Positions 191 through 36,859 of a stretch of DNA of 52,611 bases are shown one piece after another. The notes under the pieces are model-generated. The model was not told the origin of the DNA and ran no database searches. It saw nothing but the letters and a program-made list of their open reading frames with translations. The translations under genes and the position numbers were made by a program. Every line of letters starts with the position of its first letter. The stretch's first letter is position 1. The stretch lies in the NCBI GenBank assembly GCA_025362495.1, contig JANYGI010000009.1:1-52611 (forward strand), written 5' to 3'. This stretch comes from Byssovorax sp. GTDB lineage: Bacteria; Myxococcota_A; Polyangia; Polyangiales; Polyangiaceae.

Positions 191-1906
191 ATGCCTCTCA
201 AGCCCGGCGACCGCATCGATCGCTACACCCTCGTCGCGCCCCTCGGCGCGGGCGCGCAGGGCGCAGTCTGGAAGGTGATCGATCCGCTCGACGGGGGCGC
301 CGAGCGCGCGCTCAAGCTGGTGCCGACGAGCGGGCTCTCGGCCGAGTCGTTCGAGCGCGCGCGCCGCGAGGCGCAGTCGCTCGCGAGCGCGCCGCACCCG
401 AACCTCATCGCCTGTTACGGCCTCTTCGAGGATGTGGCCGCGGGGCTCGTCGGCATCGCGCTCGAGCTCGTCGACGGCGATCCGTTGCAGGAGGCCACGG
501 GCGATCCGCGGATGACGGCCGCGCACCGGAGCGCGCTCCTCGTGCAGCTCGCCGAAGCCCTGGCGTTCGTGCACGGATCGAAGCTGGTTCACCGCGATTT
601 GAAGCCCGAGAACGTCCTCGTGACGGCGGCGTTCTGGGCCGAGCCGACGCGCCCGGGGACGATCAAGCTCGTCGACTTCGGCCTCGCGATCCAGGTCGGC
701 AACCCGCGGCCGCTCACGCAGGTGGGCGGCGTCCTCGGCACGGCGCCGTACCTCGCGCCCGAGGCGATCGTGCCCTCGGTCGCGCCCGACGCGGCGCTCG
801 GGTACGCGCGGGACCTCTTCGCGTACGGCGTCCTCGCCTACGAGCTCCTGCTCGATCGCCACCCGACGGGCCTCGAGTGGGACGCTTCGCCCGTGCAGTT
901 CGTCCGCGCCTACGCGGCGGCGGCGACGAGCGGGAAAGCGTGGCCGCCTGCGGGGCTGCCGGCGCGGTGGCAGGAGCCTGTCGCGCGCTGCCTCGCCATC
1001 GACTCGACCGAGCGTCCGGCCTCCGGCGTCGCGCTGCTCGAGCTGGTGCGCGCGGGCGCGTCGATCCCGGATCCGCAAGGCGCGATCGATCCGGCGCTCT
1101 GCGCGACGGTGGTGGCGCCGTCGATCGACGCGAGCGAGATCGCGCCCACGGCTCCACCGATCGTCGCGCCTCGCGCTCCCTCACCGCCGCGGCCGTACAC
1201 CGTGCGCCTCACGCCGGCGCCGACGAAGCGTGGATCAGGCTGGATCCTCGCGGTGATCGGGCTCGTCGCCGTCGGCGTCGCCGCCGCGATCCTGCTGCTG
1301 CTCCGCCAGCCGCGGCCCGCCGGCGCCGGCCACGCGACGCCGACCGCGACGCCCGCGCCGGCTCCGCAGCCCAGCGCGATCGCGACGCCCGGCGCGAGCG
1401 CCGCGACGGCCGCCGCCTGCCCCGCGATCTGCTGCGGGGGGACGGCGTGCACCGGCGCTCCGAACAACGGGCGCGGCTGCTCCTCCGGCCGCACGTGCGT
1501 CCCCGGCTCGTGCGACGCCCGCATCGCCGAAGGCGGCGACTGGCTCCTCCGGATCGTGGGCGCCTCCGCCAACGGCAAAGAGATCTCCCCGCGCCCCGAG
1601 GTCTGCGTTCGCCACACCAGCGCTCGCGGCAACGAGCCCTGGTCGTGCACGCCCGCGGGAAGCGCCGATCCGCGCGCGGCGAGGCTCCGTATCACGACGA
1701 CCGAGCTCGCCGGCGACGGTATCGACATTTCGATCAACCGCTCTCCCAAGGCCCCTCCCGTCATCGGCAAGGGTGTTCACCTCGGCGGAGTCGGCGTCGC
1801 CGCGCTGTGCAAAGGCCTCAATTTCCGGTTCACCGGGAGTGACCACCTCGCCTACGCGGTGACGACGTTCCTCGACGACGCGAGCGAGGCGGGCGGGTCG
1901 AACTGA
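191..1906 (+). CDS. Ser/Thr protein kinase with transmembrane segment and Cys-rich extracytoplasmic tail
   Basis: Hanks-type kinase of 571 aa. The kinase domain spans about residues 10-285: Gly-rich loop GAGAQGAV at 19-26, invariant Lys near 42, catalytic HRDLKPEN (Asp136, Asn141), DFG at 162-164 and an APE-like motif at 190-192. A Pro/Ala linker leads to one transmembrane helix (about 351-371), so the C-terminal 200 residues should face the periplasm. That part opens with a cluster of eight or so cysteines (410-441) and then a domain I do not recognise, presumably a disulfide-stabilised sensor. The ATG at 191 places the kinase fold at the extreme N-terminus, as usual in myxobacterial kinases. 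It ends 3 nt from the convergent LysR gene. The kinase call is firm; the ligand and target are unknown. Confidence 0.93.
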   Translation: MPLKPGDRIDRYTLVAPLGAGAQGAVWKVIDPLDGGAERALKLVPTSGLSAESFERARREAQSLASAPHPNLIACYGLFEDVAAGLVGIALELVDGDPLQEATGDPRMTAAHRSALLVQLAEALAFVHGSKLVHRDLKPENVLVTAAFWAEPTRPGTIKLVDFGLAIQVGNPRPLTQVGGVLGTAPYLAPEAIVPSVAPDAALGYARDLFAYGVLAYELLLDRHPTGLEWDASPVQFVRAYAAAATSGKAWPPAGLPARWQEPVARCLAIDSTERPASGVALLELVRAGASIPDPQGAIDPALCATVVAPSIDASEIAPTAPPIVAPRAPSPPRPYTVRLTPAPTKRGSGWILAVIGLVAVGVAAAILLLLRQPRPAGAGHATPTATPAPAPQPSAIATPGASAATAAACPAICCGGTACTGAPNNGRGCSSGRTCVPGSCDARIAEGGDWLLRIVGASANGKEISPRPEVCVRHTSARGNEPWSCTPAGSADPRAARLRITTTELAGDGIDISINRSPKAPPVIGKGVHLGGVGVAALCKGLNFRFTGSDHLAYAVTTFLDDASEAGGSN

Positions 1907-1909
1907 CAC

Positions 1910-2878
1910 CTACGCCGCCGCGCGGCTCTCGCGGAGGAGCGCCCGGATCTGGGGCGACAGCGCGCGCCCCGACAGGAACAGATCGCGAAACCACCGCTGG
2001 GCGGGATCCTCGTCGTGGCGCTGCGACCACAGGGCGACGACCTGCGCCGCGGGCAGCTCGATCGGCGGCGCGAGCACGCGGAGGCCGAAGAGCTCGTGGG
2101 CGCGCTGCGCGACGCTGCTGGCGATGGTGCAGATCAGATCCGAGGTGCGAACGGCCAGCGGCGCCGACATGAAGTGCGGCACGCGGAGCGCCACGCGGCG
2201 GGTCGCGCCGACCTTCGCGAGCGCGCGATCGACGGCGCCGTCACGCCGCCCCTCGACGCTCACGAGCACGTGGCCGAGGGCCGTGTACGTCGCCAGATCG
2301 AGCCGCCGCTTGATCGCCGGGTGACCCTTGCGCGCGATGACGGCGAAGGGATCGCGGTACACGTCCGCGCGCCGCAGACCGGAAGGCGCGATCGATTGCG
2401 ACGCGCCGATCAGCGCGAGATCGACGTCGCCGAGGACGAGCTCCGGCACCGTGGCCGGCGAGAAGCGCTCGATTTCGAGGCGCACGAGGGGCGCGTGCTT
2501 GCCGAGGTAAGCGAGCACGTCGGGCAGCGTCGTCAGCTCGAAGTAGTCGACGGTGGCGACGCGGAAGGCGCGGGTCGAGGTCCGCGGATCGAAGGCCTCG
2601 GGCAGCGCGAGGGCGCGGCGCAGCGCCTCGAACGCGGCCGGCAGCGCCGCGCGGATCTGGATCGCGCGCGGCGTGGGCGCGAGGCCGCGGCCGACGGGCG
2701 CGAGGAGCGGATCGCCGAAGAGCTCGCGCAGCCGCGAGAGCGAGTGGCTCATCGCCGACTGGCTGACGTGGACCCGCCGCGCCGCCGCGCTGACGCTGCC
2801 CTCGACCAGGAGCGCTTCGAGCGCAGGGAGCAGGTTCAGGTTGATGGCCCGGACATCGATGACGCTCATACCTGGCAT
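1910..2878 (-). CDS. LysR-family transcriptional regulator
   Basis: 322 aa, normal LysR length. The winged helix-turn-helix lies at about residues 12-70, with the typical run of LEALLVEGSVSAAARRVHVSQ and then SAMSHSLSRLRELFGDPLL. The rest fits a type 2 periplasmic-binding-like effector domain. The start at 2878 is used here; a second Met three codons in (MSVIDVRAINLN) is equally possible. It is divergent from the SDR-hydrolase fusion, with fewer than 50 nt between start codons, the classic arrangement in which a LysR protein controls both itself and the divergent gene. The short intergenic segment (2879-2926) is the likely operator region, though no clean T-N11-A box stands out. The inducer cannot be told from sequence. 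Confidence 0.93.
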   Translation of the reverse strand: MPGMSVIDVRAINLNLLPALEALLVEGSVSAAARRVHVSQSAMSHSLSRLRELFGDPLLAPVGRGLAPTPRAIQIRAALPAAFEALRRALALPEAFDPRTSTRAFRVATVDYFELTTLPDVLAYLGKHAPLVRLEIERFSPATVPELVLGDVDLALIGASQSIAPSGLRRADVYRDPFAVIARKGHPAIKRRLDLATYTALGHVLVSVEGRRDGAVDRALAKVGATRRVALRVPHFMSAPLAVRTSDLICTIASSVAQRAHELFGLRVLAPPIELPAAQVVALWSQRHDEDPAQRWFRDLFLSGRALSPQIRALLRESRAAA

Positions 2879-2926
2879 TAGAACCCTTCACTTTTCCTCA
2901 TGCACGCGGCAACGCATCCTGGCCGC

Positions 2927-4744
2927 ATGAAGACGAACGAGAACCAGCACGAGAACGAGGTCGAGGTCCTGGTCACCGGCGGCACGGGCCTGATCGGGCG
3001 ATGGCTCCTCGCGGAGCTGACGAAGACGCGGCGGGTGGCGGCCATCGTGCGGAGGGCGGGCGAGCGCGGTCCGGAGCTCCGCGGCTTTATCGACGCGCAC
3101 GGCGGTGACTCGAGTCGCTTGCTGATTGTCGAGGGCGACGTGGAGCAGCCGTCGCTGGGGCTCACGGCCGGCTTCGACCAGGTGCGCGACGTCTACCACC
3201 TGGCGGCGCTCTTCGCGTTCGGCCTCGGCGCGGACGAGGTGCGGCGGTGCAACGTCGATGGCAGCCTGCACGTGGCCGCGTGGGCCCTCGCGCGGCCGGC
3301 GCTGCGGCGCTTCGTCTTCCTCGGCGGCTATCGCATGATGCACTCGAGCGTCGAAGGCGCCGCGGAGGGCCCTTTGCCGGAGGCCGAGCGCGCGGCGCTC
3401 TACCGCGATCACGGGGCCTACGAGGCCTCCAAGCACGATGCCTATCGCCGGGTCCGGAGCTTCGCCGCCGGGCATGGCCTGCGCTGGACGGCGGTCCACC
3501 CGAGCGGGGTCATCGGCGACTCGCGCACGGGAGAGACGACGCAGACCACCGGGCTCGGCGCCACGGTGGAGAAGCTCTGGGAGGGTCGTTTGCCGGCGCT
3601 GGTCGGCACCGAGCGCACGTTCCTCCCGCTGGTGACCGTCGATTACCTGGCGCGGTTCCTCGCCAGCGTGCCCGAGCGCGCCGAGACGATGGGACAGGAC
3701 CTCTGCGTCCTCGATCAGGCGACCCCGAAGCTCCCCGCGCTGGTGCGGGACATCGCTGCTCATCTCGGCGTGGCGGCGCCGACCAGGGTCCTCCCGCTCG
3801 GCCTGGTGCGCGCTCTGCCCCAGGCCATCACCGGCCTCGCGCCCGAGAGCCTGGGGTTCCTCACCGAGGATGCCTATGACACCACCGCTGCCGACGCCCA
3901 CGCCGCGGCGACGGGTCTCGTGATGCCCTCGATCGACGTCGCGGTGCAGCGCTGGTGTGATTACCTGGTGGCGACTCGGTTCCTCGCGCAGCCCGGCGGC
4001 GATCGCGGGGCGCTCCGGGAGGGTGCTTATCACGTGGGCGATCCGGTCACCGCCGACGTGGTCTATCTGCACGGCCTCCCCTGGAACGGCGATGCGTGGA
4101 AGCCGGTCGCCGATCGCGTCGGCGGATCGTCGGCGCGCGTGGATCTGCCTGGCCTCGGCCGCTCGACGCCGAGCGACCTCGACGACGTGGCGTGGCTCGA
4201 CCGGCTCCTCGCGCAGCGGACGCGGCCGGTCGTGCTCGTGGGGCACTCGCTCGGCGCGGCGATGGCGGTGCGTTACGCTCACGCGCACCCGGGCAAGGTT
4301 CGCGGCGTCGTCCTGGTTTCACCGGCATTTCTGCAGCCCGCGGCGCCCGCGTACGTGAAGCTCCGGCCGCTCGTCGCGCTCACGCTCCGCCGCTCGACGT
4401 CGGCCGACCTCGCTCGAAGGCTGTTGCCGGAGCAGGCCGGAGCGCCGCTGGGCGCGCCCGCGGTGGCCAGCGCCCGCGTCGATCTGCAGCGAAAAGGCGT
4501 GGCTTCCCGGATCGCGCGGTCGCTCGCGCAGGCGACGTCGCGACGGGTGCGGGCGACGCTGCGACGACAGCTCGACGAGCTCGAGCCCGGCGTCGTGCTC
4601 GTCCACGGCTCGCGCGATCCCCTGGAAATCGCGACCGATCGGGTGGTCTACGTCGTTGACGGCGCCGGCCACGCCCCGCACTTGACACGAACGGACGAGG
4701 TCGCCGCCATCATCGCCGCGTTCGCGCCGGCCCCGCCGTCGTGA
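2927..4744 (+). CDS. fusion of extended SDR (NAD(P)-dependent epimerase-like) and alpha/beta hydrolase
   Basis: 605 aa with two enzymes in one chain. Residues 10-345 form an extended SDR: nucleotide-binding TGGTGLIG at 17-24 right after beta-strand 1, and a catalytic YEASK (YxxxK) further on. Residues 370-605 form an alpha/beta hydrolase: VVYLHGLPWNG for the oxyanion region, the nucleophile elbow GHSLG (Ser about 441), a late acidic residue in HGSRDPLE, and the catalytic His in GAGHAPHL. The start at ATG 2927 puts the Rossmann strand near the N-terminus; ATG 2900 would add nine residues. Both active sites look complete. A reductase/epimerase coupled to an ester or thioester hydrolase suggests sequential steps on a small hydrophobic substrate, but this is inference. 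Likely controlled by the divergent LysR gene. Confidence 0.88.
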   Translation: MKTNENQHENEVEVLVTGGTGLIGRWLLAELTKTRRVAAIVRRAGERGPELRGFIDAHGGDSSRLLIVEGDVEQPSLGLTAGFDQVRDVYHLAALFAFGLGADEVRRCNVDGSLHVAAWALARPALRRFVFLGGYRMMHSSVEGAAEGPLPEAERAALYRDHGAYEASKHDAYRRVRSFAAGHGLRWTAVHPSGVIGDSRTGETTQTTGLGATVEKLWEGRLPALVGTERTFLPLVTVDYLARFLASVPERAETMGQDLCVLDQATPKLPALVRDIAAHLGVAAPTRVLPLGLVRALPQAITGLAPESLGFLTEDAYDTTAADAHAAATGLVMPSIDVAVQRWCDYLVATRFLAQPGGDRGALREGAYHVGDPVTADVVYLHGLPWNGDAWKPVADRVGGSSARVDLPGLGRSTPSDLDDVAWLDRLLAQRTRPVVLVGHSLGAAMAVRYAHAHPGKVRGVVLVSPAFLQPAAPAYVKLRPLVALTLRRSTSADLARRLLPEQAGAPLGAPAVASARVDLQRKGVASRIARSLAQATSRRVRATLRRQLDELEPGVVLVHGSRDPLEIATDRVVYVVDGAGHAPHLTRTDEVAAIIAAFAPAPPS

Positions 4745-4859
4745 ACGCGCCATCCGCCCGGTGCTCCCGCCGCCGACATCACGGCAGATCGCTGTCGACA
4801 CGACGCCGTGGCGCCCCTACACCACCGGCCCATGTCACGGGCGCCGGAGGCCGGCCCCC

Positions 4860-4866
4860 AAGGAGG
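4860..4866 (+). promoter_or_regulatory. strong ribosome binding site deciding a GTG start
   Basis: AAGGAGG, a full anti-Shine-Dalgarno match, sits 7 nt before GTG 4874. It argues for that start of the DUF420 gene instead of upstream in-frame ATG codons (4808, 4832), whose added residues look non-coding. Confidence 0.75.
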
Positions 4867-4873
4867 ATCGCCG

Positions 4874-5449
4874 GTGTCGACCGAAGCAGTGGTTCTGGAG
4901 CGGAAAATGAACCGGGTCGCGTGGGCCCTCTCCGCCGTGGTGCTGGCGCTGGTCGGCCTGATGCGCGCGGTGCACATCCCGAGTCCGATCGACTTCAGCT
5001 TCCTGCCGCCGATCCACGCGACGCTGAACGCACTCACCGCCGTGACGCTGGTGGCGGCGCTGGTGTTCATCAAGCAGAAGCAGATAGCAAGGCACCGGGC
5101 GGCCATCTACGTGTCGATCGGCCTGAGCGTGCTCTTCCTGCTCTCGTACGTGGTCTATCACTTCACCTCGGCCGAGGTGCGGTTTGGCGACCTCAACCAC
5201 GATGGCAAGCTCGATCCCGCCGAGCTCGCCGCCGTGGGCGGGATGCGCCCCGTGTATCTGATCCTGCTGATCACCCACATCACCCTTGCCGGGACGATCC
5301 TGCCGTTCATCCTCTTCACGTTCAACCGCGCCTTCACCAAGCAGTACGCGCGCCACAAGGCCATGGCCCGCTGGGTGTTCCCGCTGTGGCTCTACGTCGC
5401 GGTGACAGGGCCTCTCTGCTATCTGATGCTCCGCCCGTTCTACCCTTAG
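4874..5449 (+). CDS. DUF420 family membrane protein with an EF-hand-like loop
   Basis: 191 aa with four or five hydrophobic helices, matching the DUF420 (YozB-like) family: PIHATLNALTAVTLVAALV, a YVVYHF motif, conserved His residues (including LLITHITLAG) and a closing WVFPLWLYVAVTGPLCYLML. Family members often sit near cytochrome oxidase/SCO genes, so a role in respiratory-chain assembly has been suggested, but no such genes are here. The odd feature is a loop between helices, DLNHDGKLDPAE, which fits the 12-residue EF-hand calcium loop exactly (D1, N3, D5, G6, D9, E12) and would lie on one face of the membrane. It follows the SDR-hydrolase gene after 129 nt and may be transcribed independently. 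Confidence 0.85.
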   Translation: MSTEAVVLERKMNRVAWALSAVVLALVGLMRAVHIPSPIDFSFLPPIHATLNALTAVTLVAALVFIKQKQIARHRAAIYVSIGLSVLFLLSYVVYHFTSAEVRFGDLNHDGKLDPAELAAVGGMRPVYLILLITHITLAGTILPFILFTFNRAFTKQYARHKAMARWVFPLWLYVAVTGPLCYLMLRPFYP

Positions 5450-27462: not shown

Positions 27463-27584
27463 CGACGCAAGCCGCGCTTGACGACGTGGGCCCGATCGCC
27501 CTAAGCGCGCGCCGGGCTCCGAACCGCACGCCCTGCGGACCTCGGAGCCAGCTCGAAGCAGTCGACGCGCGCGCTCCAGCCAAT

Positions 27585-27775
27585 CCGAGGTCGGGCGCCC
27601 GCGCCGGACAACAGGGAAGCCGGTTCGAAGCCGGCGCGGCCCCCGCCACTGTACCCGGGGACGAAGGCGGAAATCACCACTGGATCAAGCCCGGCGCGCG
27701 AGCGTCGGAGGCGAGCCGGGAAGGTCCGCCGGAGGATGATCCGGGAGCCAGGAGACCTGCTGCGTCGAGACCGTC
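27585..27775 (+). promoter_or_regulatory. cobalamin (adenosylcobalamin) riboswitch
   Basis: The diagnostic elements occur in order: an ACAGGGAAGCCGG stretch and complementary CCGGC, GCGGCCCCCGCCACTGTA, CACTGG, a GCCGGGAAGG segment, then the B12 box GAGCCAGGAGACCTGC at about 27744-27759. GGTC at 27589-27592 pairs with GACC at 27769-27772, closing P1. A hairpin (CCTCC/GGAGG) and a GACGG/CCGTC stem-loop (27802-27824) follow and could form the expression platform. High B12 normally represses such genes. The next plus-strand gene, 150 nt on, is a lipoprotein of unknown function rather than a known cobalamin gene. Confidence 0.92.
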
Positions 27776-27926
27776 CGCGACCTCCGGGGTTGGAGGGATG
27801 TGACGGCTGCGCGACGCGTCCGTCTTGCCGCCTTTCCATCCATTCGCCTCGTGGTCGCTCCCTGGTGGAGCGCCGGCTCCACCTCCAGATCGCGAGGCGC
27901 GGGCGAGCGCCTCGACGGAGACGACG

Positions 27927-29234
27927 ATGACGAAGCAGATCGATGGAAACGCGGCGCGCGCGCTCGCGACGATGATGATGATCGGGAGCGCGGCCGTGGC
28001 CGCCGGGGCGTGCGACGGAGGCCAGATCTTGCCGCCGCCGCTGCCGGATACGACGAGCACGACGACCGGAATGGATCCGACCACGTCGAGCAGTACGGCG
28101 GGCTCGGGAGGCGCGGGCGGCTCGGGTGGATCGACCGCGACGACGACGTCGACGTCGACGAGCGCGAGCAGCAGCGGCACCGGCGGGGCGGCGCCGACGT
28201 GCCTCGACGGCGCGGCGATCGCCGACGTGCTGGCGATCAAGGATCCCTCGCTCTGCGCGATCGCGCGGTACGACGCCGCGGAGGCGCTCGGCTTCAACGC
28301 GCCGTCGTGGGGCGCGCATGGCGGACCGCTCACGCTCCGCGCAGGCAAGAACGGGACGTTCGATCTCGTGCGCTGGACGCCGCCCGCCGACACGAAAGGC
28401 ACGCTCACGAAGCAAGAGGTCAACGTCGATGGGAAGATCCCGACCGGCGCGTTCCTCGGCGGCCAGGCCGTCGATGTTCCCTTCTTCGGCTGGACGGCGC
28501 TCTCGTGGACGGGCGCGTTCCCGGACACCACCGGCGAGGTGCTGCTCGTGAAGGGCAGCGCCGTCGACAAGCGCTACGCGACGAGCGGAGCGTACGCGGC
28601 CGCGGGGATCGGCGCGGCGAACATGCAGGGTCGCCTGCTGCTGACGGGCCTCTCGCCGGTCGGTGACGCGAAGGCGGGCGCCAACGGGCTCTATGCTGCC
28701 GACACCTGCGGCACGCCCGCGCAACCCTCGCTGCTGCCGGGCATGGACGCGACGTGCAAGGCGCCGATCAGCGTCGCGACGTGGGGCGATTCGTCGGGCC
28801 CGGTCGCCGTCGATCACGCGGGCAACGCCTTCGTCATCGCGTCGAGCTTCGACGACACGCAGGAGGCGCGGGGCTTCGATGCGGCGTCGATCGCGCGCGG
28901 CGCGGCGCCGACGGCGGGCACCAAGCTCTTCACGATCCCGGGCTTCGGATCCAGCGTCGCGGCGCTCGCGCCGACGGCCACCGCGCCCGGCATCATCGCG
29001 TACCAGCCGAGCAGCTCGACGACGTTCCTGCCCGAGGACGCCATCGAGCAGCAGTACACCGTGACGGGCGGCAAGCTCGCCGCGATGGGCGTCCCCACGA
29101 CGCTCTTCCAGAGCGCCGTCCCCAACGCGCTGCTGTACGTGATGATCGACGATCAAGATCGTCTGTGGGTCGGAACTGATCAGGCCTCGCCGGCGACGGG
29201 CGCGACGTACGTCGTCGTCACGCGCAAGCCCTGA
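27927..29234 (+). CDS. secreted lipoprotein under cobalamin riboswitch control
   Basis: 435 aa from ATG 27927, with GGAG 6 nt upstream. Signal peptide with a lipobox near residue 26 (VAAGAC), then a Ser/Thr/Gly/Ala linker to about residue 90, as in other lipoproteins in this window. The remaining 340 residues contain repeating short beta-type segments such as GPLTLRAGKNGTFDLVRW, PVAVDHAGNAFVIASS and LYVMIDDQDRLWVGTDQ, spaced like blades of a beta-propeller. Several cysteines (about 91, 109, 251, 266) could form disulfides. Together with the riboswitch, this suggests a surface protein that captures corrinoids, comparable in concept to BtuG of Bacteroides (a propeller lipoprotein). The evidence is architecture and control only; no sequence homology is claimed. 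Confidence 0.8.
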   Translation: MTKQIDGNAARALATMMMIGSAAVAAGACDGGQILPPPLPDTTSTTTGMDPTTSSSTAGSGGAGGSGGSTATTTSTSTSASSSGTGGAAPTCLDGAAIADVLAIKDPSLCAIARYDAAEALGFNAPSWGAHGGPLTLRAGKNGTFDLVRWTPPADTKGTLTKQEVNVDGKIPTGAFLGGQAVDVPFFGWTALSWTGAFPDTTGEVLLVKGSAVDKRYATSGAYAAAGIGAANMQGRLLLTGLSPVGDAKAGANGLYAADTCGTPAQPSLLPGMDATCKAPISVATWGDSSGPVAVDHAGNAFVIASSFDDTQEARGFDAASIARGAAPTAGTKLFTIPGFGSSVAALAPTATAPGIIAYQPSSSTTFLPEDAIEQQYTVTGGKLAAMGVPTTLFQSAVPNALLYVMIDDQDRLWVGTDQASPATGATYVVVTRKP

Positions 29235-29240
29235 TCAAGG

Positions 29241-29261
29241 GGCCGCCCGGCCTCGATTTTT
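29241..29261 (+). terminator. weak terminator after the riboswitch-controlled gene
   Basis: A short GC stem GGCC-GCCC-GGCC, extendable by one or two pairs, followed by TCGATTTTT. A further 7-bp stem (GCCGCGG 29274-29280 with CCGCGGC 29294-29300) lies before the next gene. Plausible but short, so transcription into the downstream gene is not ruled out. Confidence 0.35.
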
Positions 29262-29337
29262 CCGTTGCGATGGGCCGCGGTGATTTTCCTTCCCCGCGGC
29301 ACATGGCATGCACGTAGCGTTGCGTGGCGGAGGCATC

Positions 29338-32540: not shown

Positions 32541-35246
32541 ATGACCCTCGCTCACCGACCCCGCTCCGCCCACGATCTCGCGCCCTCGCAGGCCTCGCCT
32601 CGCCCCCGACGACGAAGGTCCGCGCTGGTCGCGTCCGCGCTCGCGTTCGCGGCCCTGCTCGGCTCGACGAACGCGCTCGCCGACACCCGCACCGAGGCGC
32701 GCCGTCACTTCAAGAACGGCATGAGCCTCGTCGACAAGAAGAGGTTCACCGAAGGCATCAAGGAGCTCGAGAAGGCCTACGAGATCCTTCCCCACCCCAA
32801 CGTCGCGTTCAACATCGCGCAGGCGCAGGCGGAGGCCGGCAACCTCGACTTCGCCATTCGCGCGTACCGCACCTACCTGCAGAGCGATCCCCCCGACCGC
32901 GTCGACGTCGCGAAGATCATGCAGGAGCTCGAAGAGAAGCTCGCCGCGCAGAAGGCCGCCGCAGCGGGGCCGACGACGGGCACCGTGGAGCCCGGCAAGA
33001 CGGGCACCGAGCCCGGCAAGACCGGCACCGGCGAGCCTGGCAAGACCGATCAAGTCGAGCCCGGCAAGACCGGCACCGGCGAGCCTGGCAAGACCGGCAC
33101 CGAGCCCGGCAAGACGGGCACCGGCGAGCCTGGCAAGACCGGCACCGAGCCTGGCAAGACAGGCACCGAGCCCGGCAAGACAGGGGCTCCCGACAAGGGC
33201 GTAGGCGACGCCGATCGCGCCGACACCTCGCGCATCGTCGGTCAGGCCCGCACCGAAGACATCTACCAGGAGACCGTCGTCACGGCGTCGCGCAACGCGC
33301 AGAGCCCGCTCGACTCGCCGAACTCCACCGCGATCATCACCAAGCAAGACATCCATCTCTCGGGCATCACGCGCATCCCCGAGCTGCTCCGCCGCGTCGC
33401 CGGCATGGACGTCATGCAGATAACGGGCGGCGACTCCAACGTGTCGATGCGCGGCTTCAACAGCCGCCTCGCCAACAAGCTCCTCGTCCTCGTCAACGGG
33501 CGATCGGTCTACAACGACATCCTCGGCTCCACGTTCTGGGAGGCGCTCTCGATCGACGTCGATCAGATCGAGCGCATCGAGGTCGTGCGCGGCCCCGGCT
33601 CGGCGCTCTACGGCGCCGACGCCTTCACCGGCGTCGTCAACATCATCACGATCGCCCCCGGCGAGGGGAAGACGGGCATGCGCGTCGGGTACGGCGATCA
33701 CAACGAGGCCTATGGCTCGGGGTGGGCCGCGGGCCGCGATGGCGACTTCTCGTACCGCGCGTCGGCCGGCTACACGCGCCACCCGCGCTGGTCGAAGGAG
33801 ATCGCGCCCGGCCGCCTCGACGCCCAGATCAGCGACTTCGATCAGAACCTCGGCGGTGAGGACATCCGCATGGATATCCGCACCGCCGAGCGCATCAACA
33901 AGGACACCGAGATCTCCATCGGCGGCGGCTACTCGCGCTACTCGCTCGACGTCTACGGCATCGGCCCGATCAACGACTACACCGTCAAGGGCGACACCTC
34001 GGACGTCACCATCGATTTCAAGAGCAAGCACATCAACGCGCGCACGTACTTCACGCGCTTCGCGGTGCGCTCGGGCTTCGACTACACGTACCTCGGGCAC
34101 TCGGGCTACCCGGCCACGCCCGAGCAGAACTCGTTCGACGCCGAGGTCGAGTACGTCAACGACTTCAAGCTCCCCGAGGCGCTCAAGCACGACATCCACC
34201 TCGGCCTCGGCTACCGCCTCAAGAACGCCACGTGGGAGTACCTCCAGAGCGATCTGCCGACGGAGCACCACGGCTCGGTCTACCTGCAAGACTCGATGTC
34301 GGTGGGCAAGAGCTTCACCTTCGTGGCCTCGGGGCGACTCGACTACGTGCCGTACCTGACGCGGGTCATCGCCTCGCCCCGCGCCTCGGTGATCATCAAG
34401 CCCACCGATCGCCAGGCCATCCGCGTCTCGGGCTCGACCGCGTTCCGGACACCGAGCTTCCTCGAGTCGTACCTCGACCTGCCGCTCCAGCTCACGCTCC
34501 CCGGCGTCGAGCTGATCTCGGCCTCGAAGCGCGAGGACAACCCGCTCGCGAAGACGCAGCCCGAGCAGATCACCACGGTCGAGGCCAGCTACCTCAACCA
34601 GCAGAGCGACTCGTTCGAGTTCGAGCTCACCGCGTACTACAACCGCGTGACCGATCTCGTCGCGCTCGCCCCCAACCGGAACGTGTCGCTCTCGGGCAAG
34701 GCAAGCGGGCTCGGCGGCCTCGATCCGAACACCGGCCGCTACACCGTGTCGTACGGCGGCTGGGTCAACCAGTGCGACGTCCACCACGTCGGCGGCGGCG
34801 AGATCGGCGGCCGCCTCTACCCGGTGGAAGGCCTCGACATCTTCGCCAACTACGCGCTCAACCTCTCGACGCAGCAGCTCCCGCAGGGCTGCACCGCGCC
34901 CGAGGACAAGCGCACCAGCGCGCACAAGCTCAACGTCGGCGTGCAGGTCCGCACCAAGGCCGGGTTCAACGGCGAGGTCAGCTTCCACTACCAGTCCGCG
35001 CAGACGTGGGGCGAGCAGGTCGCCACGCCGACAGGCATCCTCGATCAGCAGTTCCCGCTCGCGGCGTACACGCTCTTCAACGCCCGCATCGGCTACCGCT
35101 TCTTCCACGACCGGGCCGAGATCTCGGGCACCGTGTACAACGCGCTCGCGGGCGTCGGCACCGACGACGGCGCGCCGACGCAGCAGCACCCGTTCGGGAA
35201 CCGCATCGGCCGCCGCTTCATGGGCTTCTTCTCGTACTCGCTGTGA
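32541..35246 (+). CDS. TonB-dependent receptor with N-terminal TPR domain and EPGKTG repeat linker
   Basis: 901 aa from ATG 32541. Signal peptide (ALVASALAFAALLGSTNALA), then a TPR-like helical domain (RRHFKNGMSLVDKKRFTEGIKELEKAYEILPHPNVAFNIAQAQ, about 45-140) that would sit in the periplasm. Next come nine copies of EPGKTG(T) as a linker (about 150-214). Then the receptor proper: a TonB-box-like QETVVTAS, a plug domain (NSTAIITKQDI... ELLRRVAGMDV... GSALYGADAFTGVVNII) and a 22-strand-type barrel to the C-terminal aromatic residue. It would import a scarce ligand (siderophore, corrinoid or glycan) across the outer membrane with TonB energy. It is followed 5 nt later by a lipoprotein gene, almost certainly co-transcribed. 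Ligand unknown. Confidence 0.9.
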   Translation: MTLAHRPRSAHDLAPSQASPRPRRRRSALVASALAFAALLGSTNALADTRTEARRHFKNGMSLVDKKRFTEGIKELEKAYEILPHPNVAFNIAQAQAEAGNLDFAIRAYRTYLQSDPPDRVDVAKIMQELEEKLAAQKAAAAGPTTGTVEPGKTGTEPGKTGTGEPGKTDQVEPGKTGTGEPGKTGTEPGKTGTGEPGKTGTEPGKTGTEPGKTGAPDKGVGDADRADTSRIVGQARTEDIYQETVVTASRNAQSPLDSPNSTAIITKQDIHLSGITRIPELLRRVAGMDVMQITGGDSNVSMRGFNSRLANKLLVLVNGRSVYNDILGSTFWEALSIDVDQIERIEVVRGPGSALYGADAFTGVVNIITIAPGEGKTGMRVGYGDHNEAYGSGWAAGRDGDFSYRASAGYTRHPRWSKEIAPGRLDAQISDFDQNLGGEDIRMDIRTAERINKDTEISIGGGYSRYSLDVYGIGPINDYTVKGDTSDVTIDFKSKHINARTYFTRFAVRSGFDYTYLGHSGYPATPEQNSFDAEVEYVNDFKLPEALKHDIHLGLGYRLKNATWEYLQSDLPTEHHGSVYLQDSMSVGKSFTFVASGRLDYVPYLTRVIASPRASVIIKPTDRQAIRVSGSTAFRTPSFLESYLDLPLQLTLPGVELISASKREDNPLAKTQPEQITTVEASYLNQQSDSFEFELTAYYNRVTDLVALAPNRNVSLSGKASGLGGLDPNTGRYTVSYGGWVNQCDVHHVGGGEIGGRLYPVEGLDIFANYALNLSTQQLPQGCTAPEDKRTSAHKLNVGVQVRTKAGFNGEVSFHYQSAQTWGEQVATPTGILDQQFPLAAYTLFNARIGYRFFHDRAEISGTVYNALAGVGTDDGAPTQQHPFGNRIGRRFMGFFSYSL
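32988..33183 (+). repeat. in-frame tandem repeat coding for EPGKTG units
   Basis: Nine consecutive units of 18-24 nt (GAGCCCGGCAAGACSGGCACC-like, S = C or G) within the receptor gene, encoding EPGKTG with small variations (GT, GTG, DQV). The near identity of codons shows recent duplication, so copy number may vary among strains. Confidence 0.85.
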
Positions 35247-35251
35247 ACGTC

Positions 35252-36859
35252 ATGGACCACCGCATGAACGCCACCTCCGATCAGACGACCCCGCGGCTTC
35301 GCGGCTCCATGCTCGCCCTCGCGGGGCTCTCGCTCTTCGCGGCCGGCGCGAGCTCGTGCGGCGATCCCGACGTGTTCCTGCCGAGCTACCTCGCCGGCGG
35401 CCCCGCCGGGGCGCTCGACGGGACCATCACCTACGCGGGCCCGCTCCCGTGCACCGAGCAGCAACACATCGTCGGCGCGGCCGTGCTCCTGGTCTTCGAC
35501 GTCAACCTGCTCCCGCCGCCCGAGGGCCTCGGGACGACGGCCACGAGCCTCGGCGTCGTCGCCGGCGAGAAGCTCTTCGCGGGCGTGCGCGGCCGCCTCA
35601 CGTTCAAGAGCGACGGCTCGCGCTGGTGCCCCGCCGCGAGCGTCGCGCCCGTCACCGTCACCGCCGACTGGGCCGTCGGGCCGCTCGCGGCCGGCGTCTT
35701 CCAGGTCCGCGGCTTCTACGATCTCGACGGCAACTTCGATCCCGGATTCAAGATCCAGAACCTCCCGACCAAGGGCGACATCGGCGGCGGCGCCATCGAC
35801 AACGCGGCCGCGGTGCTCGCCGGCGCGGCGCCGATCTACCGAGAAATCGGCCTTGGCGTCGTGCAGAGCGACGGCTCGCGCAAGATCCCGGACACCGGCT
35901 CGCACGTCGGCGGCGTGGCCGTCACGCTCGGCCTCCCCCTGCCGCTCGAGCGACCGATCTTCTACGCGAAGGGCGTCCTCGACGAGACGCCGCTGAAGAA
36001 CAAAGACCCGCTCAACGTGAAGATGCCGTCCGACTTCCAGCTCGCGACGTTCAGCACCTTCAGCCCCGCCGCGACCGAGTCGTCGCTGATCCGTCTCACG
36101 CTCGCCGCGGGCGTCCCCAAGGAAGAGGTCGACACCGCCGCGGCCTCGCCCTTCGACCTGCCCGTGAAGAACGCGACCCCGCCGACGATCTTCTACTCAC
36201 GGCAGGACGTGAACGGCGACGGCGTGATCAACGCCGTCGATCACGTCCCCGACTCGGAGCAGATCCCCTCGCTCTTCCCGCTCTCGGTCTTCGCCAAGCT
36301 CACCGACAAAGACGACCTCAACAACCAGCCGAACCCCGCCGTGGTGATCCAGGCGCTGACGATCTACCAGTCGCTCACCGCCACGGCGTTCGCGCCGGCC
36401 ACACTCGCGTCGGCCGAGCCCGAGGCCATCGTCGCCATCCGGCCCGCGGCGCTCTGCATCGATCCGGGCGACCCGAGCAAGCCCGGCGTCTTCGTGATCT
36501 CGCACCAGACCGACAAGGCGATGAACACCATCATCCCGGACGAGAAGGCCCTCTCCGCCGCGCTCGAGCTCCAGTTCCACCGCAAGGTGTCGATCGTCTA
36601 CGGCTGCCTCCCCGAGGGCCGCTACGGGGTGAACCTGATCTACGGCACCGGCCAGGCGTGGTCGGTGCCGAACGAGGCCGGCGTCTGCGCGGCGAGCGAG
36701 CCGCAGACCAGCGACGGCAAGGGCTGCTCGGAGGGCGACGGCAAGCCGCACCGCGCGCGGCTCCTCTCGCAGACCGGCGTCCTGACCATCACCGCGCCCG
36801 GGGACGCCGCCTACTGCAAGGCGCACCCGACGCCCGCCGCCTGCCTCGCGGCGAAGTAG
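35252..36859 (+). CDS. lipoprotein partner of the TonB-dependent receptor, with EF-hand-type motif
   Basis: 535 aa from ATG 35252 (ATG 35264 possible), 5 nt after the receptor stop. Signal peptide ending in ASSC gives a lipoprotein. The mature part is mainly beta with an internal DVNGDGVINAVDHVPD that matches a dockerin/EF-hand calcium loop, and DLDGNFDPGF as a second weaker one. Several Cys pairs near the C-terminus (residues about 405, 469, 485, 496, 521 and 530) suggest disulfides. TonB receptors that import large ligands are commonly paired with surface lipoproteins that seize the ligand; this pairing is inferred from position. No sequence family recognised. Confidence 0.82.
   Translation: MDHRMNATSDQTTPRLRGSMLALAGLSLFAAGASSCGDPDVFLPSYLAGGPAGALDGTITYAGPLPCTEQQHIVGAAVLLVFDVNLLPPPEGLGTTATSLGVVAGEKLFAGVRGRLTFKSDGSRWCPAASVAPVTVTADWAVGPLAAGVFQVRGFYDLDGNFDPGFKIQNLPTKGDIGGGAIDNAAAVLAGAAPIYREIGLGVVQSDGSRKIPDTGSHVGGVAVTLGLPLPLERPIFYAKGVLDETPLKNKDPLNVKMPSDFQLATFSTFSPAATESSLIRLTLAAGVPKEEVDTAAASPFDLPVKNATPPTIFYSRQDVNGDGVINAVDHVPDSEQIPSLFPLSVFAKLTDKDDLNNQPNPAVVIQALTIYQSLTATAFAPATLASAEPEAIVAIRPAALCIDPGDPSKPGVFVISHQTDKAMNTIIPDEKALSAALELQFHRKVSIVYGCLPEGRYGVNLIYGTGQAWSVPNEAGVCAASEPQTSDGKGCSEGDGKPHRARLLSQTGVLTITAPGDAAYCKAHPTPAACLAAK

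What the first reader, a model, noticed from the sequence alone, without database searches (positions are those of the whole stretch)
27585..29234. Cobalamin riboswitch in front of a lipoprotein of unknown function
The aptamer has every diagnostic element, including the GAGCCAGGAGACC box. The gene it serves is not a known cobalamin gene but a lipoprotein with a Ser/Thr-rich linker and repeated beta segments spaced like propeller blades. In Bacteroides, the propeller lipoprotein BtuG captures B12 at the surface. This could be a parallel invention in Myxococcota and a new B12-acquisition component.
Basis: partly seen in the sequence, partly recalled or inferred. Interest (0 to 1): 0.82.

Follow-up and report, generated by a model that had tools for sequence, protein, structure and literature searches.

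The report
B12-switched propeller lipoprotein of Polyangia
A soil-bacterium gene for a lipid-anchored, propeller-shaped protein sits behind a vitamin B12-sensing RNA switch, and the pairing is conserved in many relatives, which points to an undescribed protein family that may help these bacteria capture vitamin B12.

Summary
A complete cobalamin riboswitch (RF00174, 78.7 bits, cut-off 31.5) lies at 27571-27778 (+), the only one found in the 10.8 Mb genome. It precedes a 435-aa lipoprotein gene (27927-29234, +). The pairing is conserved: of 38 distinct homologous genes, 29 have an over-threshold aptamer just upstream on the same strand; one more shows the B12 box at a contig end. The other eight are four Sorangium genes and four second copies. 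A hairpin beside the ribosome-binding site is kept in 13 of 13 leaders examined, and two terminator-like sites follow the stop codon. AlphaFold gives a beta-propeller (pLDDT 94.8); the closest solved structures are mostly ones I recall as six-bladed, BtuG is seven-bladed, and PF16819 does not match. The genome has two MM-CoA-mutase-family genes but no CbiC, so it probably imports B12. Best reading: a new family, seen here only in Myxococcota-type records, of B12-repressed propeller lipoproteins that capture corrinoids at the outer membrane. The regulatory link is well supported; ligand binding, surface exposure and partner are inferred.

The parts
27571..27778 (+). Cobalamin riboswitch aptamer (RF00174)
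   Evidence: 78.7 bits, gathering 31.5, full model 1-189
27894..27913 (+). Hairpin (GAGGCGC, loop, GCGCCTC) with a G-rich loop just upstream of the ribosome-binding region; probable expression-platform element
   Evidence: four of five consensus pairs kept in 13 of 13 leaders, two of the four with changes on both sides; the fifth pair is broken in 4 of 13
27914..27926 (+). Purine-rich ribosome-binding region (GACGGAGACGACG) before the ATG
   Evidence: read from the sequence
27927..29234 (+). Lipoprotein gene: signal peptide with lipobox Cys (residue 29), Ser/Thr/Gly-rich linker, beta-propeller domain from about residue 90
29239..29282 (+). Two terminator-like stem-loops with T-rich tails directly after the stop codon; suggest a single-gene transcript
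   Evidence: 2 found, 0.7 (sd 0.9) expected from shuffles
32541..35246 (+). TonB-dependent receptor with N-terminal TPR region; possible but unproven partner
   Evidence: (same cluster in 6 of 21 loci)

Best explanation
The riboswitch senses corrinoid in the cytoplasm. When corrinoid is plentiful it closes the start of the lipoprotein mRNA, probably by docking a G-rich hairpin loop beside the ribosome-binding site onto the C-rich loop of the aptamer; when corrinoid is scarce the lipoprotein is made. The protein is exported, lipidated and held by a flexible Ser/Thr/Gly linker, most likely on the outer membrane. Its propeller captures corrinoids and hands them to a TonB-dependent receptor, from which they reach a BtuC-like permease. 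Shown by computation: the aptamer, its conserved pairing with this gene, the hairpin, the lipobox, the predicted propeller, two MM-CoA-mutase-family genes and no detectable CbiC. Inferred: loop docking, sign of regulation, surface location, corrinoid binding and partner.
For: Aptamer. Conservation: aptamer upstream in 17 of 20 strong homologous loci, in both more distant ones, L022 and L023, and in L143, in 5 of 10 loci (the other five: three Sorangium genes and two second copies), and in L170, L173 and L176 but not L180 and L181. Tree of 35 rows: the aptamer label changes 4 times against a shuffled mean of 8.1, 1 of 500 shuffles as low; the rows without it are Sorangium genes and second copies. 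In G000, G004, G013, G023, G029 and G044 one search counts one aptamer each, and it is the one at this gene (one search used stricter filters). Four hairpin pairs kept in 13 of 13 leaders. Propeller: pLDDT 94.8, pTM 0.92, Z about 18-21 to propellers. Need for import: no CbiC, two MM_CoA_mutase matches. One FecCD permease whose best NCBIfam model is BtuC, 203.9 bits, cut-off 461. A lipobox-like site by a permissive rule in 23 of 24 homologous loci. In G017 and G038 the same RNA lies upstream of an operon with a TonB receptor; the G038 one is by sequence closest to solved BtuB.
Against: No binding or expression data. Propellers bind many ligands and include enzymes. The gene does not adjoin a clear btuB; the nearest TonB receptor starts 3.3 kb downstream past two genes and its cluster is there in 6 of 21 loci only. 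In the three BtuB-like operon loci scanned (G004, G023, G044) no aptamer was found, so B12 uptake genes are not uniformly under the switch. Residue +2 after the lipid Cys is Asp in the window protein and in L141, an inner-membrane signal in E. coli, although in Myxococcus Lys +2 marks the inner membrane (PMC3222651, passages). The lipoprotein is not enriched in CbiC-lacking genomes: CbiC in 2 of 22 lipoprotein genomes and 6 of the other 75. The window's genome lacks the MetH activation domain, found in 17 of 22; a BtuB-like query gives it only a 29% match and the 420-aa operon lipoprotein none.
Confidence: 0.6

Rival explanations
1. The lipoprotein is B12-repressed for another reason: it is an envelope enzyme or binding protein (for example a quinoprotein-like or lactonase-like propeller) that compensates for loss of a B12-dependent step.
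For: Structural rows include a PQQ-bound sugar dehydrogenase at the top and gluconolactonases. Invariant residues (WGxHGGP, Arg60, Asp94, Asp207) could form an active site. In relatives B12 aptamers also precede genes that I read by eye as nrdAB, with metE further down in one locus, i.e. B12-independent substitutes (names recalled).
Against: No enzyme family model matches, and the profile finds no PQQ enzyme among PDB sequences at E 1. A lipid-anchored protein on a long linker, probably alone in its transcript, fits capture better than a replacement enzyme (judgement).
Confidence: 0.22
2. It is an extracellular sensor or adaptor for the Ser/Thr kinases encoded nearby.
For: Kinase genes lie on both sides here. 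A gene of the same cluster is on the divergent side in 9 of 21 loci, and in six further loci a different, larger kinase-like gene (cluster 5, read by eye) lies within the region. The propeller of the kinase PknD is among the structural matches.
Against: The kinase next to the gene is not the same across loci, and in several loci (for example L038, L040, L043, L047, L049) no kinase was seen by eye in the stretch fetched, some of which are short; the aptamer is kept in four of these five by the scans and as a B12 box at the contig end in L043. Such kinases are common in these genomes (recalled).
Confidence: 0.08
3. It is a true, highly diverged BtuG.
For: Same design: riboswitch-controlled lipoprotein with a linker and a beta-propeller.
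Against: PF16819 does not match this gene; the profile of 25 homologs lists no BtuG entry among PDB sequences at E 1; the closest structures are mostly propellers recalled as six-bladed, BtuG2 has seven (PMC10404256, passages).
Confidence: 0.08
4. The aptamer is a chance or decayed element with no bearing on this gene.
For: Its score is towards the lower end of the relatives' range, 64 to 115.5 bits.
Against: 29 of 38 homologs keep it, with a conserved hairpin beside the start codon in 13 of 13 examined.
Confidence: 0.02

Closest known systems
BtuG, surface B12-capture lipoprotein of Bacteroides
   Same: Lipoprotein, beta-propeller, under a cobalamin riboswitch, linker between lipid anchor and propeller
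   Different: No PF16819 match, closest structures mostly recalled as six-bladed rather than seven, not next to btuB, another phylum
BtuH, BtuJ (DUF4465) and BtuK lipoproteins of Bacteroides thetaiotaomicron
   Same: Accessory lipoproteins in riboswitch-controlled B12 loci that bind corrinoids (PMC12751083, passages)
   Different: BtuJ is published as a jelly-roll, not a propeller; no Pfam model, DUF4465 included, matches the window protein
BtuB-like operon of Polyangia (LIC_13355-like lipoprotein, BtuB-like receptor, 420-aa lipoprotein)
   Same: Cobalamin aptamer upstream in G017 and G038; lipoproteins involved
   Different: Different protein families; the 420-aa lipoprotein is not found in the window's genome
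PQQ sugar dehydrogenases, NHL domains, designed Pizza6 propellers
   Same: Overall fold, Z about 18-21 in the rows for these
   Different: 7-14% identity in those rows; no shared function shown

Membership tests
Cobalamin riboswitch (RF00174) | Covariance-model score above the curated gathering score | tested here: met
   78.7 bits against 31.5, positions 1-189 of 189
Cobalamin riboswitch (RF00174) | Position in the 5' leader on the strand of the gene | tested here: met
   148 bases from aptamer end to ATG; same side in the other positive loci
Cobalamin riboswitch (RF00174) | Expression platform that couples binding to translation or transcription | tested here: inconclusive
   conserved hairpin beside the ribosome-binding region; loop docking not tested
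Cobalamin riboswitch (RF00174) | Corrinoid binding and control of expression | not testable with these tools
   needs in-line probing or a reporter assay
BtuG | Match to PF16819 (DUF5074) | tested here: not met
   no Pfam family up to E 1; no PF16819 match listed on the window contig
BtuG | Seven-bladed beta-propeller | tested here: inconclusive
   propeller predicted; best rows mostly propellers recalled as six-bladed; blades not counted from coordinates
BtuG | Gene next to btuB | tested here: not met
   next gene is a 313-aa protein without family match; TonB receptor 3.3 kb downstream, 99 bits on the TonB-B12 model against a cut-off of 600
BtuG | Lipidated and exposed on the cell surface | tested here: inconclusive
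   lipobox read from the sequence (homologs); exposure cannot be tested here; +2 Asp noted
BtuG | Very tight corrinoid binding | not testable with these tools
   needs purified protein

The most novel reading that the evidence does not exclude
An independently evolved, non-BtuG propeller captures vitamin B12 on the surface of Polyangia. It is controlled by its own riboswitch as a stand-alone gene and serves bacteria that need B12 but do not make the corrin ring: a second solution to B12 capture with the same class of fold, released from the switch in Sorangium.
Probability: 0.5. Interest if true: 0.75.

Novelty: new variant of a known kind. Interest (0 to 1): 0.62.

Why it matters
Many bacteria that need B12 do not make it, yet the surface capture proteins I found described are those of gut Bacteroides. 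A conserved, riboswitch-controlled propeller family in Myxococcota would show that the strategy also arose in environmental bacteria, possibly independently, and it gives a testable candidate in a named, sequenced strain (Minicystis rosea DSM 24000). It also shows how a conserved riboswitch can suggest a role for a protein with no recognised family.

Tried and rejected
Pfam and NCBIfam on the lipoprotein: no family. PDB sequences with the profile: 27 weak hits up to E 1, mainly Pizza6 designs and asparaginases, none named BtuG. Foldseek ranked lectins and sialidases high with TM-scores of about 0.35-0.52, which I read as generic propeller matches. BtuG and BtuB structures were not in the rows shown, which excludes nothing. 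Viral contigs: no relative. RNA minimum-energy fold of the leader: z -0.9, uninformative. Sigma-70 promoter scan: none found. The idea that the lipoprotein marks B12 non-producers is not supported by the counts. Of I left out the two further hits in the own genome (L026, L029; signal and linker region only) and the short or weak hits L024, L027, L028, L030. My own gene caller is rough: it did not call the lipoprotein itself in L037, L039 and L045, and several regions were short or cut by contig ends, so neighbour counts are approximate. PF16819 gave weak hits elsewhere in these genomes, over the cut-off in 3 of 22, one of them the window's genome on another contig. Paper searches listed no description of this family; they cover open-licence PubMed Central only and two lists were cut (15 of 21, 12 of 599). 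In the second check I corrected the hairpin coordinates, the +2 residue of L141 and the statement on kinases; because of the last I raised the kinase rival from 0.07 to 0.08, and I lowered the chance-element rival from 0.03 to 0.02 only so that the odds add up to 1.

Full report
What is there. A full-length cobalamin aptamer (RF00174) lies at window 27571-27778 on the + strand, 78.7 bits against a gathering score of 31.5. It is the only over-threshold Rfam match in the window and the only RF00174 match reported for the whole 10.8 Mb genome, estimated 96.6% complete. The next gene on the same strand, 27927-29234, encodes 435 residues: a signal peptide ending in AVAAGA-C, a Ser/Thr/Gly-rich linker and a domain from about residue 90. 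Two terminator-like sites follow its stop codon at 29239-29282, 2 found in the stretch against 0.7 expected, so the transcript may hold this gene only.

The pairing is conserved. A search of 97 genomes (the own one included) found matches in 23. I worked with 20 strong loci outside the window's genome (L003-L021 and L025) and two more distant full-length ones (L022, L023), which with the window's own make 22 genomes; short or linker-only hits were left out. RF00174 was found just upstream on the same strand in 17 of the 20 and in both distant ones. Ten of the 11 were scanned, with 5 positive; the eleventh, L143, was positive. A profile search of 377 genomes drawn from the phylum found matches in 15, all labelled as the window's family or order. 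It added four genes, since one further locus, L180, appears to be the same gene as L142 by coordinates and sequence; three of the four carry the aptamer. Counting each gene once and the window itself, 29 of 38 homologous genes have an aptamer over threshold. The nine without: four Sorangium genes (L007/L124, L123, L125, L126); four second copies (L009/L131, L127, L181, L142/L180); and L014/L133, whose contig begins inside the aptamer and still shows the B12 box.

Tree. In a tree of 35 rows (34 of the 38 genes; L142 and L180 count as one) the label 'aptamer' changes four times, where shuffled labels need 8.1 on average, and 1 of 500 shuffles was as low. L133 was counted as positive there. The closest relative of the window protein is that of Minicystis rosea (55% identity). 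The four Sorangium genes form one group whose nearest row, L005, has the aptamer, so loss in Sorangium is the simplest reading. Both genomes with the Sorangium genus label (g19) in the set carry CbiC, a corrin-synthesis gene, one of them as a partial match at a contig end; this would fit relaxed control in B12 makers, but the number is small, and one of the two (G018) has no match to the lipoprotein.

How control may work. In 13 leaders examined (window and 12 loci, of the 29 available) a short hairpin lies just before the ribosome-binding region. Four of its five consensus pairs are kept in all 13, two of these four with sequences changed on both sides; the fifth pair is broken in 4 of 13. 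Its loop is G-rich in most rows and the aptamer has a conserved C-rich stretch, so docking of the two loops beside the ribosome site is plausible; this step is inference. No terminator-like site was found between aptamer and gene, which favours translational control. Repression is the usual sign for this class (recalled), but an activating corrinoid riboswitch is reported (title and start of abstract of PMC10653944, listing).

The protein. No Pfam or NCBIfam model matches. Residues invariant in 25 aligned homologs include WGxHGGP, Cys21, Arg60, Asp94, Gly114, Gly202 and Asp207 of the domain. AlphaFold2 from 25 sequences gives mean pLDDT 94.8 and pTM 0.92, nearly all beta. VIA-align places it at Z about 18-21 with propellers such as a PQQ sugar dehydrogenase, TRIM2 NHL domains and designed Pizza6; that most of these have six blades is recalled. 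BtuG2 of Bacteroides has seven blades (PMC10404256, passages), and BtuG was reported only in Bacteroidetes (PMC6143338, passages). PF16819, the propeller family reported beside DUF4465 genes (PMC13398666, passages), does not match this gene. By a permissive rule a lipobox-like site was found in 23 of 24 homologous loci, not in L137. The residue after the Cys is Asp in the window protein and in L141 and Gly, Ala, Ser, Thr or Pro in the other 22; none has the Lys that marks inner-membrane lipoproteins in Myxococcus xanthus (PMC3222651, passages).

Physiology. The genome has two matches to MM_CoA_mutase, a B12-dependent enzyme family, no CbiC and no methionine synthase activation domain, which 17 of 22 lipoprotein genomes have. 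It has one FecCD permease, whose best NCBIfam model is BtuC, though far below that model's cut-off. It therefore probably imports corrinoid; one synthesis marker was tested. In six genomes (G000, G004, G013, G023, G029, G044) a single aptamer is counted and it is the one at this gene. In the 22 lipoprotein genomes a BtuB-like receptor with E below 1e-80 occurs in 10, and the 420-aa lipoprotein beside it in the same 10; the window's genome has only a 29% receptor match and no match to the lipoprotein. CbiC occurs in 2 of those 22 genomes and in 6 of the other 75, so the lipoprotein is not tied to non-producers as such.

Surroundings. A TPR-bearing TonB receptor lies near the gene in the closest relatives (cluster in 6 of 21 loci) and a kinase of one cluster on the divergent side in 9 of 21; six further loci have a different, larger kinase-like gene within the region (by eye). 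None of these neighbours is as constant as the aptamer, so the aptamer-lipoprotein pair is the conserved unit. The receptor's plug resembles those of Cir and BtuB and it reaches 99 bits on the TonB-B12 model against a cut-off of 600, so it is a candidate partner only.

Verdict. That the gene is under B12 control is strongly supported by comparison, though not by experiment. That the protein captures B12 is the most economical explanation, at about 0.6. It works like BtuG in design, but it is not a member of that family by the tests made here.

Noticed in passing
L087 (G038) 769-5023; L082 (G017): Cobalamin aptamer upstream of a Polyangia B12-uptake-like operon: in L087 a LIC_13355-like lipoprotein, a BtuB-like receptor and a 420-aa lipoprotein of no family; in L082 the receptor and the 420-aa lipoprotein were seen.
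   Followed up: partly
L083, L084, L086, L088, L089, L095, L097: Other cobalamin aptamers in relatives precede genes read by eye as ribonucleotide reductase nrdA or nrdAB (with metE further down in L083), an aminotransferase cluster (L084) and cobalt transport genes (L097).
   Followed up: no
L099 857-2008 (G089) and L041 10636-11787 (G073): Another possible propeller lipoprotein: directly behind its own cobalamin aptamer in G089; in G073 a gene that looks similar by eye overlaps the end of the window-type lipoprotein gene.
   Followed up: no
L123, L124, L125, L126: Sorangium copies of the lipoprotein lack the aptamer; the Sorangium genome of L124 (G057) and another genome of its genus label (G018) carry CbiC.
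   Followed up: partly
L111-L119: A FecCD permease gene lies next to a gene read by eye as coaX (type III pantothenate kinase) in 9 of the 10 regions fetched.
   Followed up: no
window 35243-36859: A 538-aa probable lipoprotein without a Pfam or NCBIfam match over cut-off overlaps the end of the TPR-TonB receptor gene; the same cluster follows the receptor in L031 and L033.
   Followed up: no
G000:C20:23642-24022 (L193): A short PF16819-like stretch just over the family cut-off in the window's genome, on another contig than the lipoprotein.
   Followed up: no
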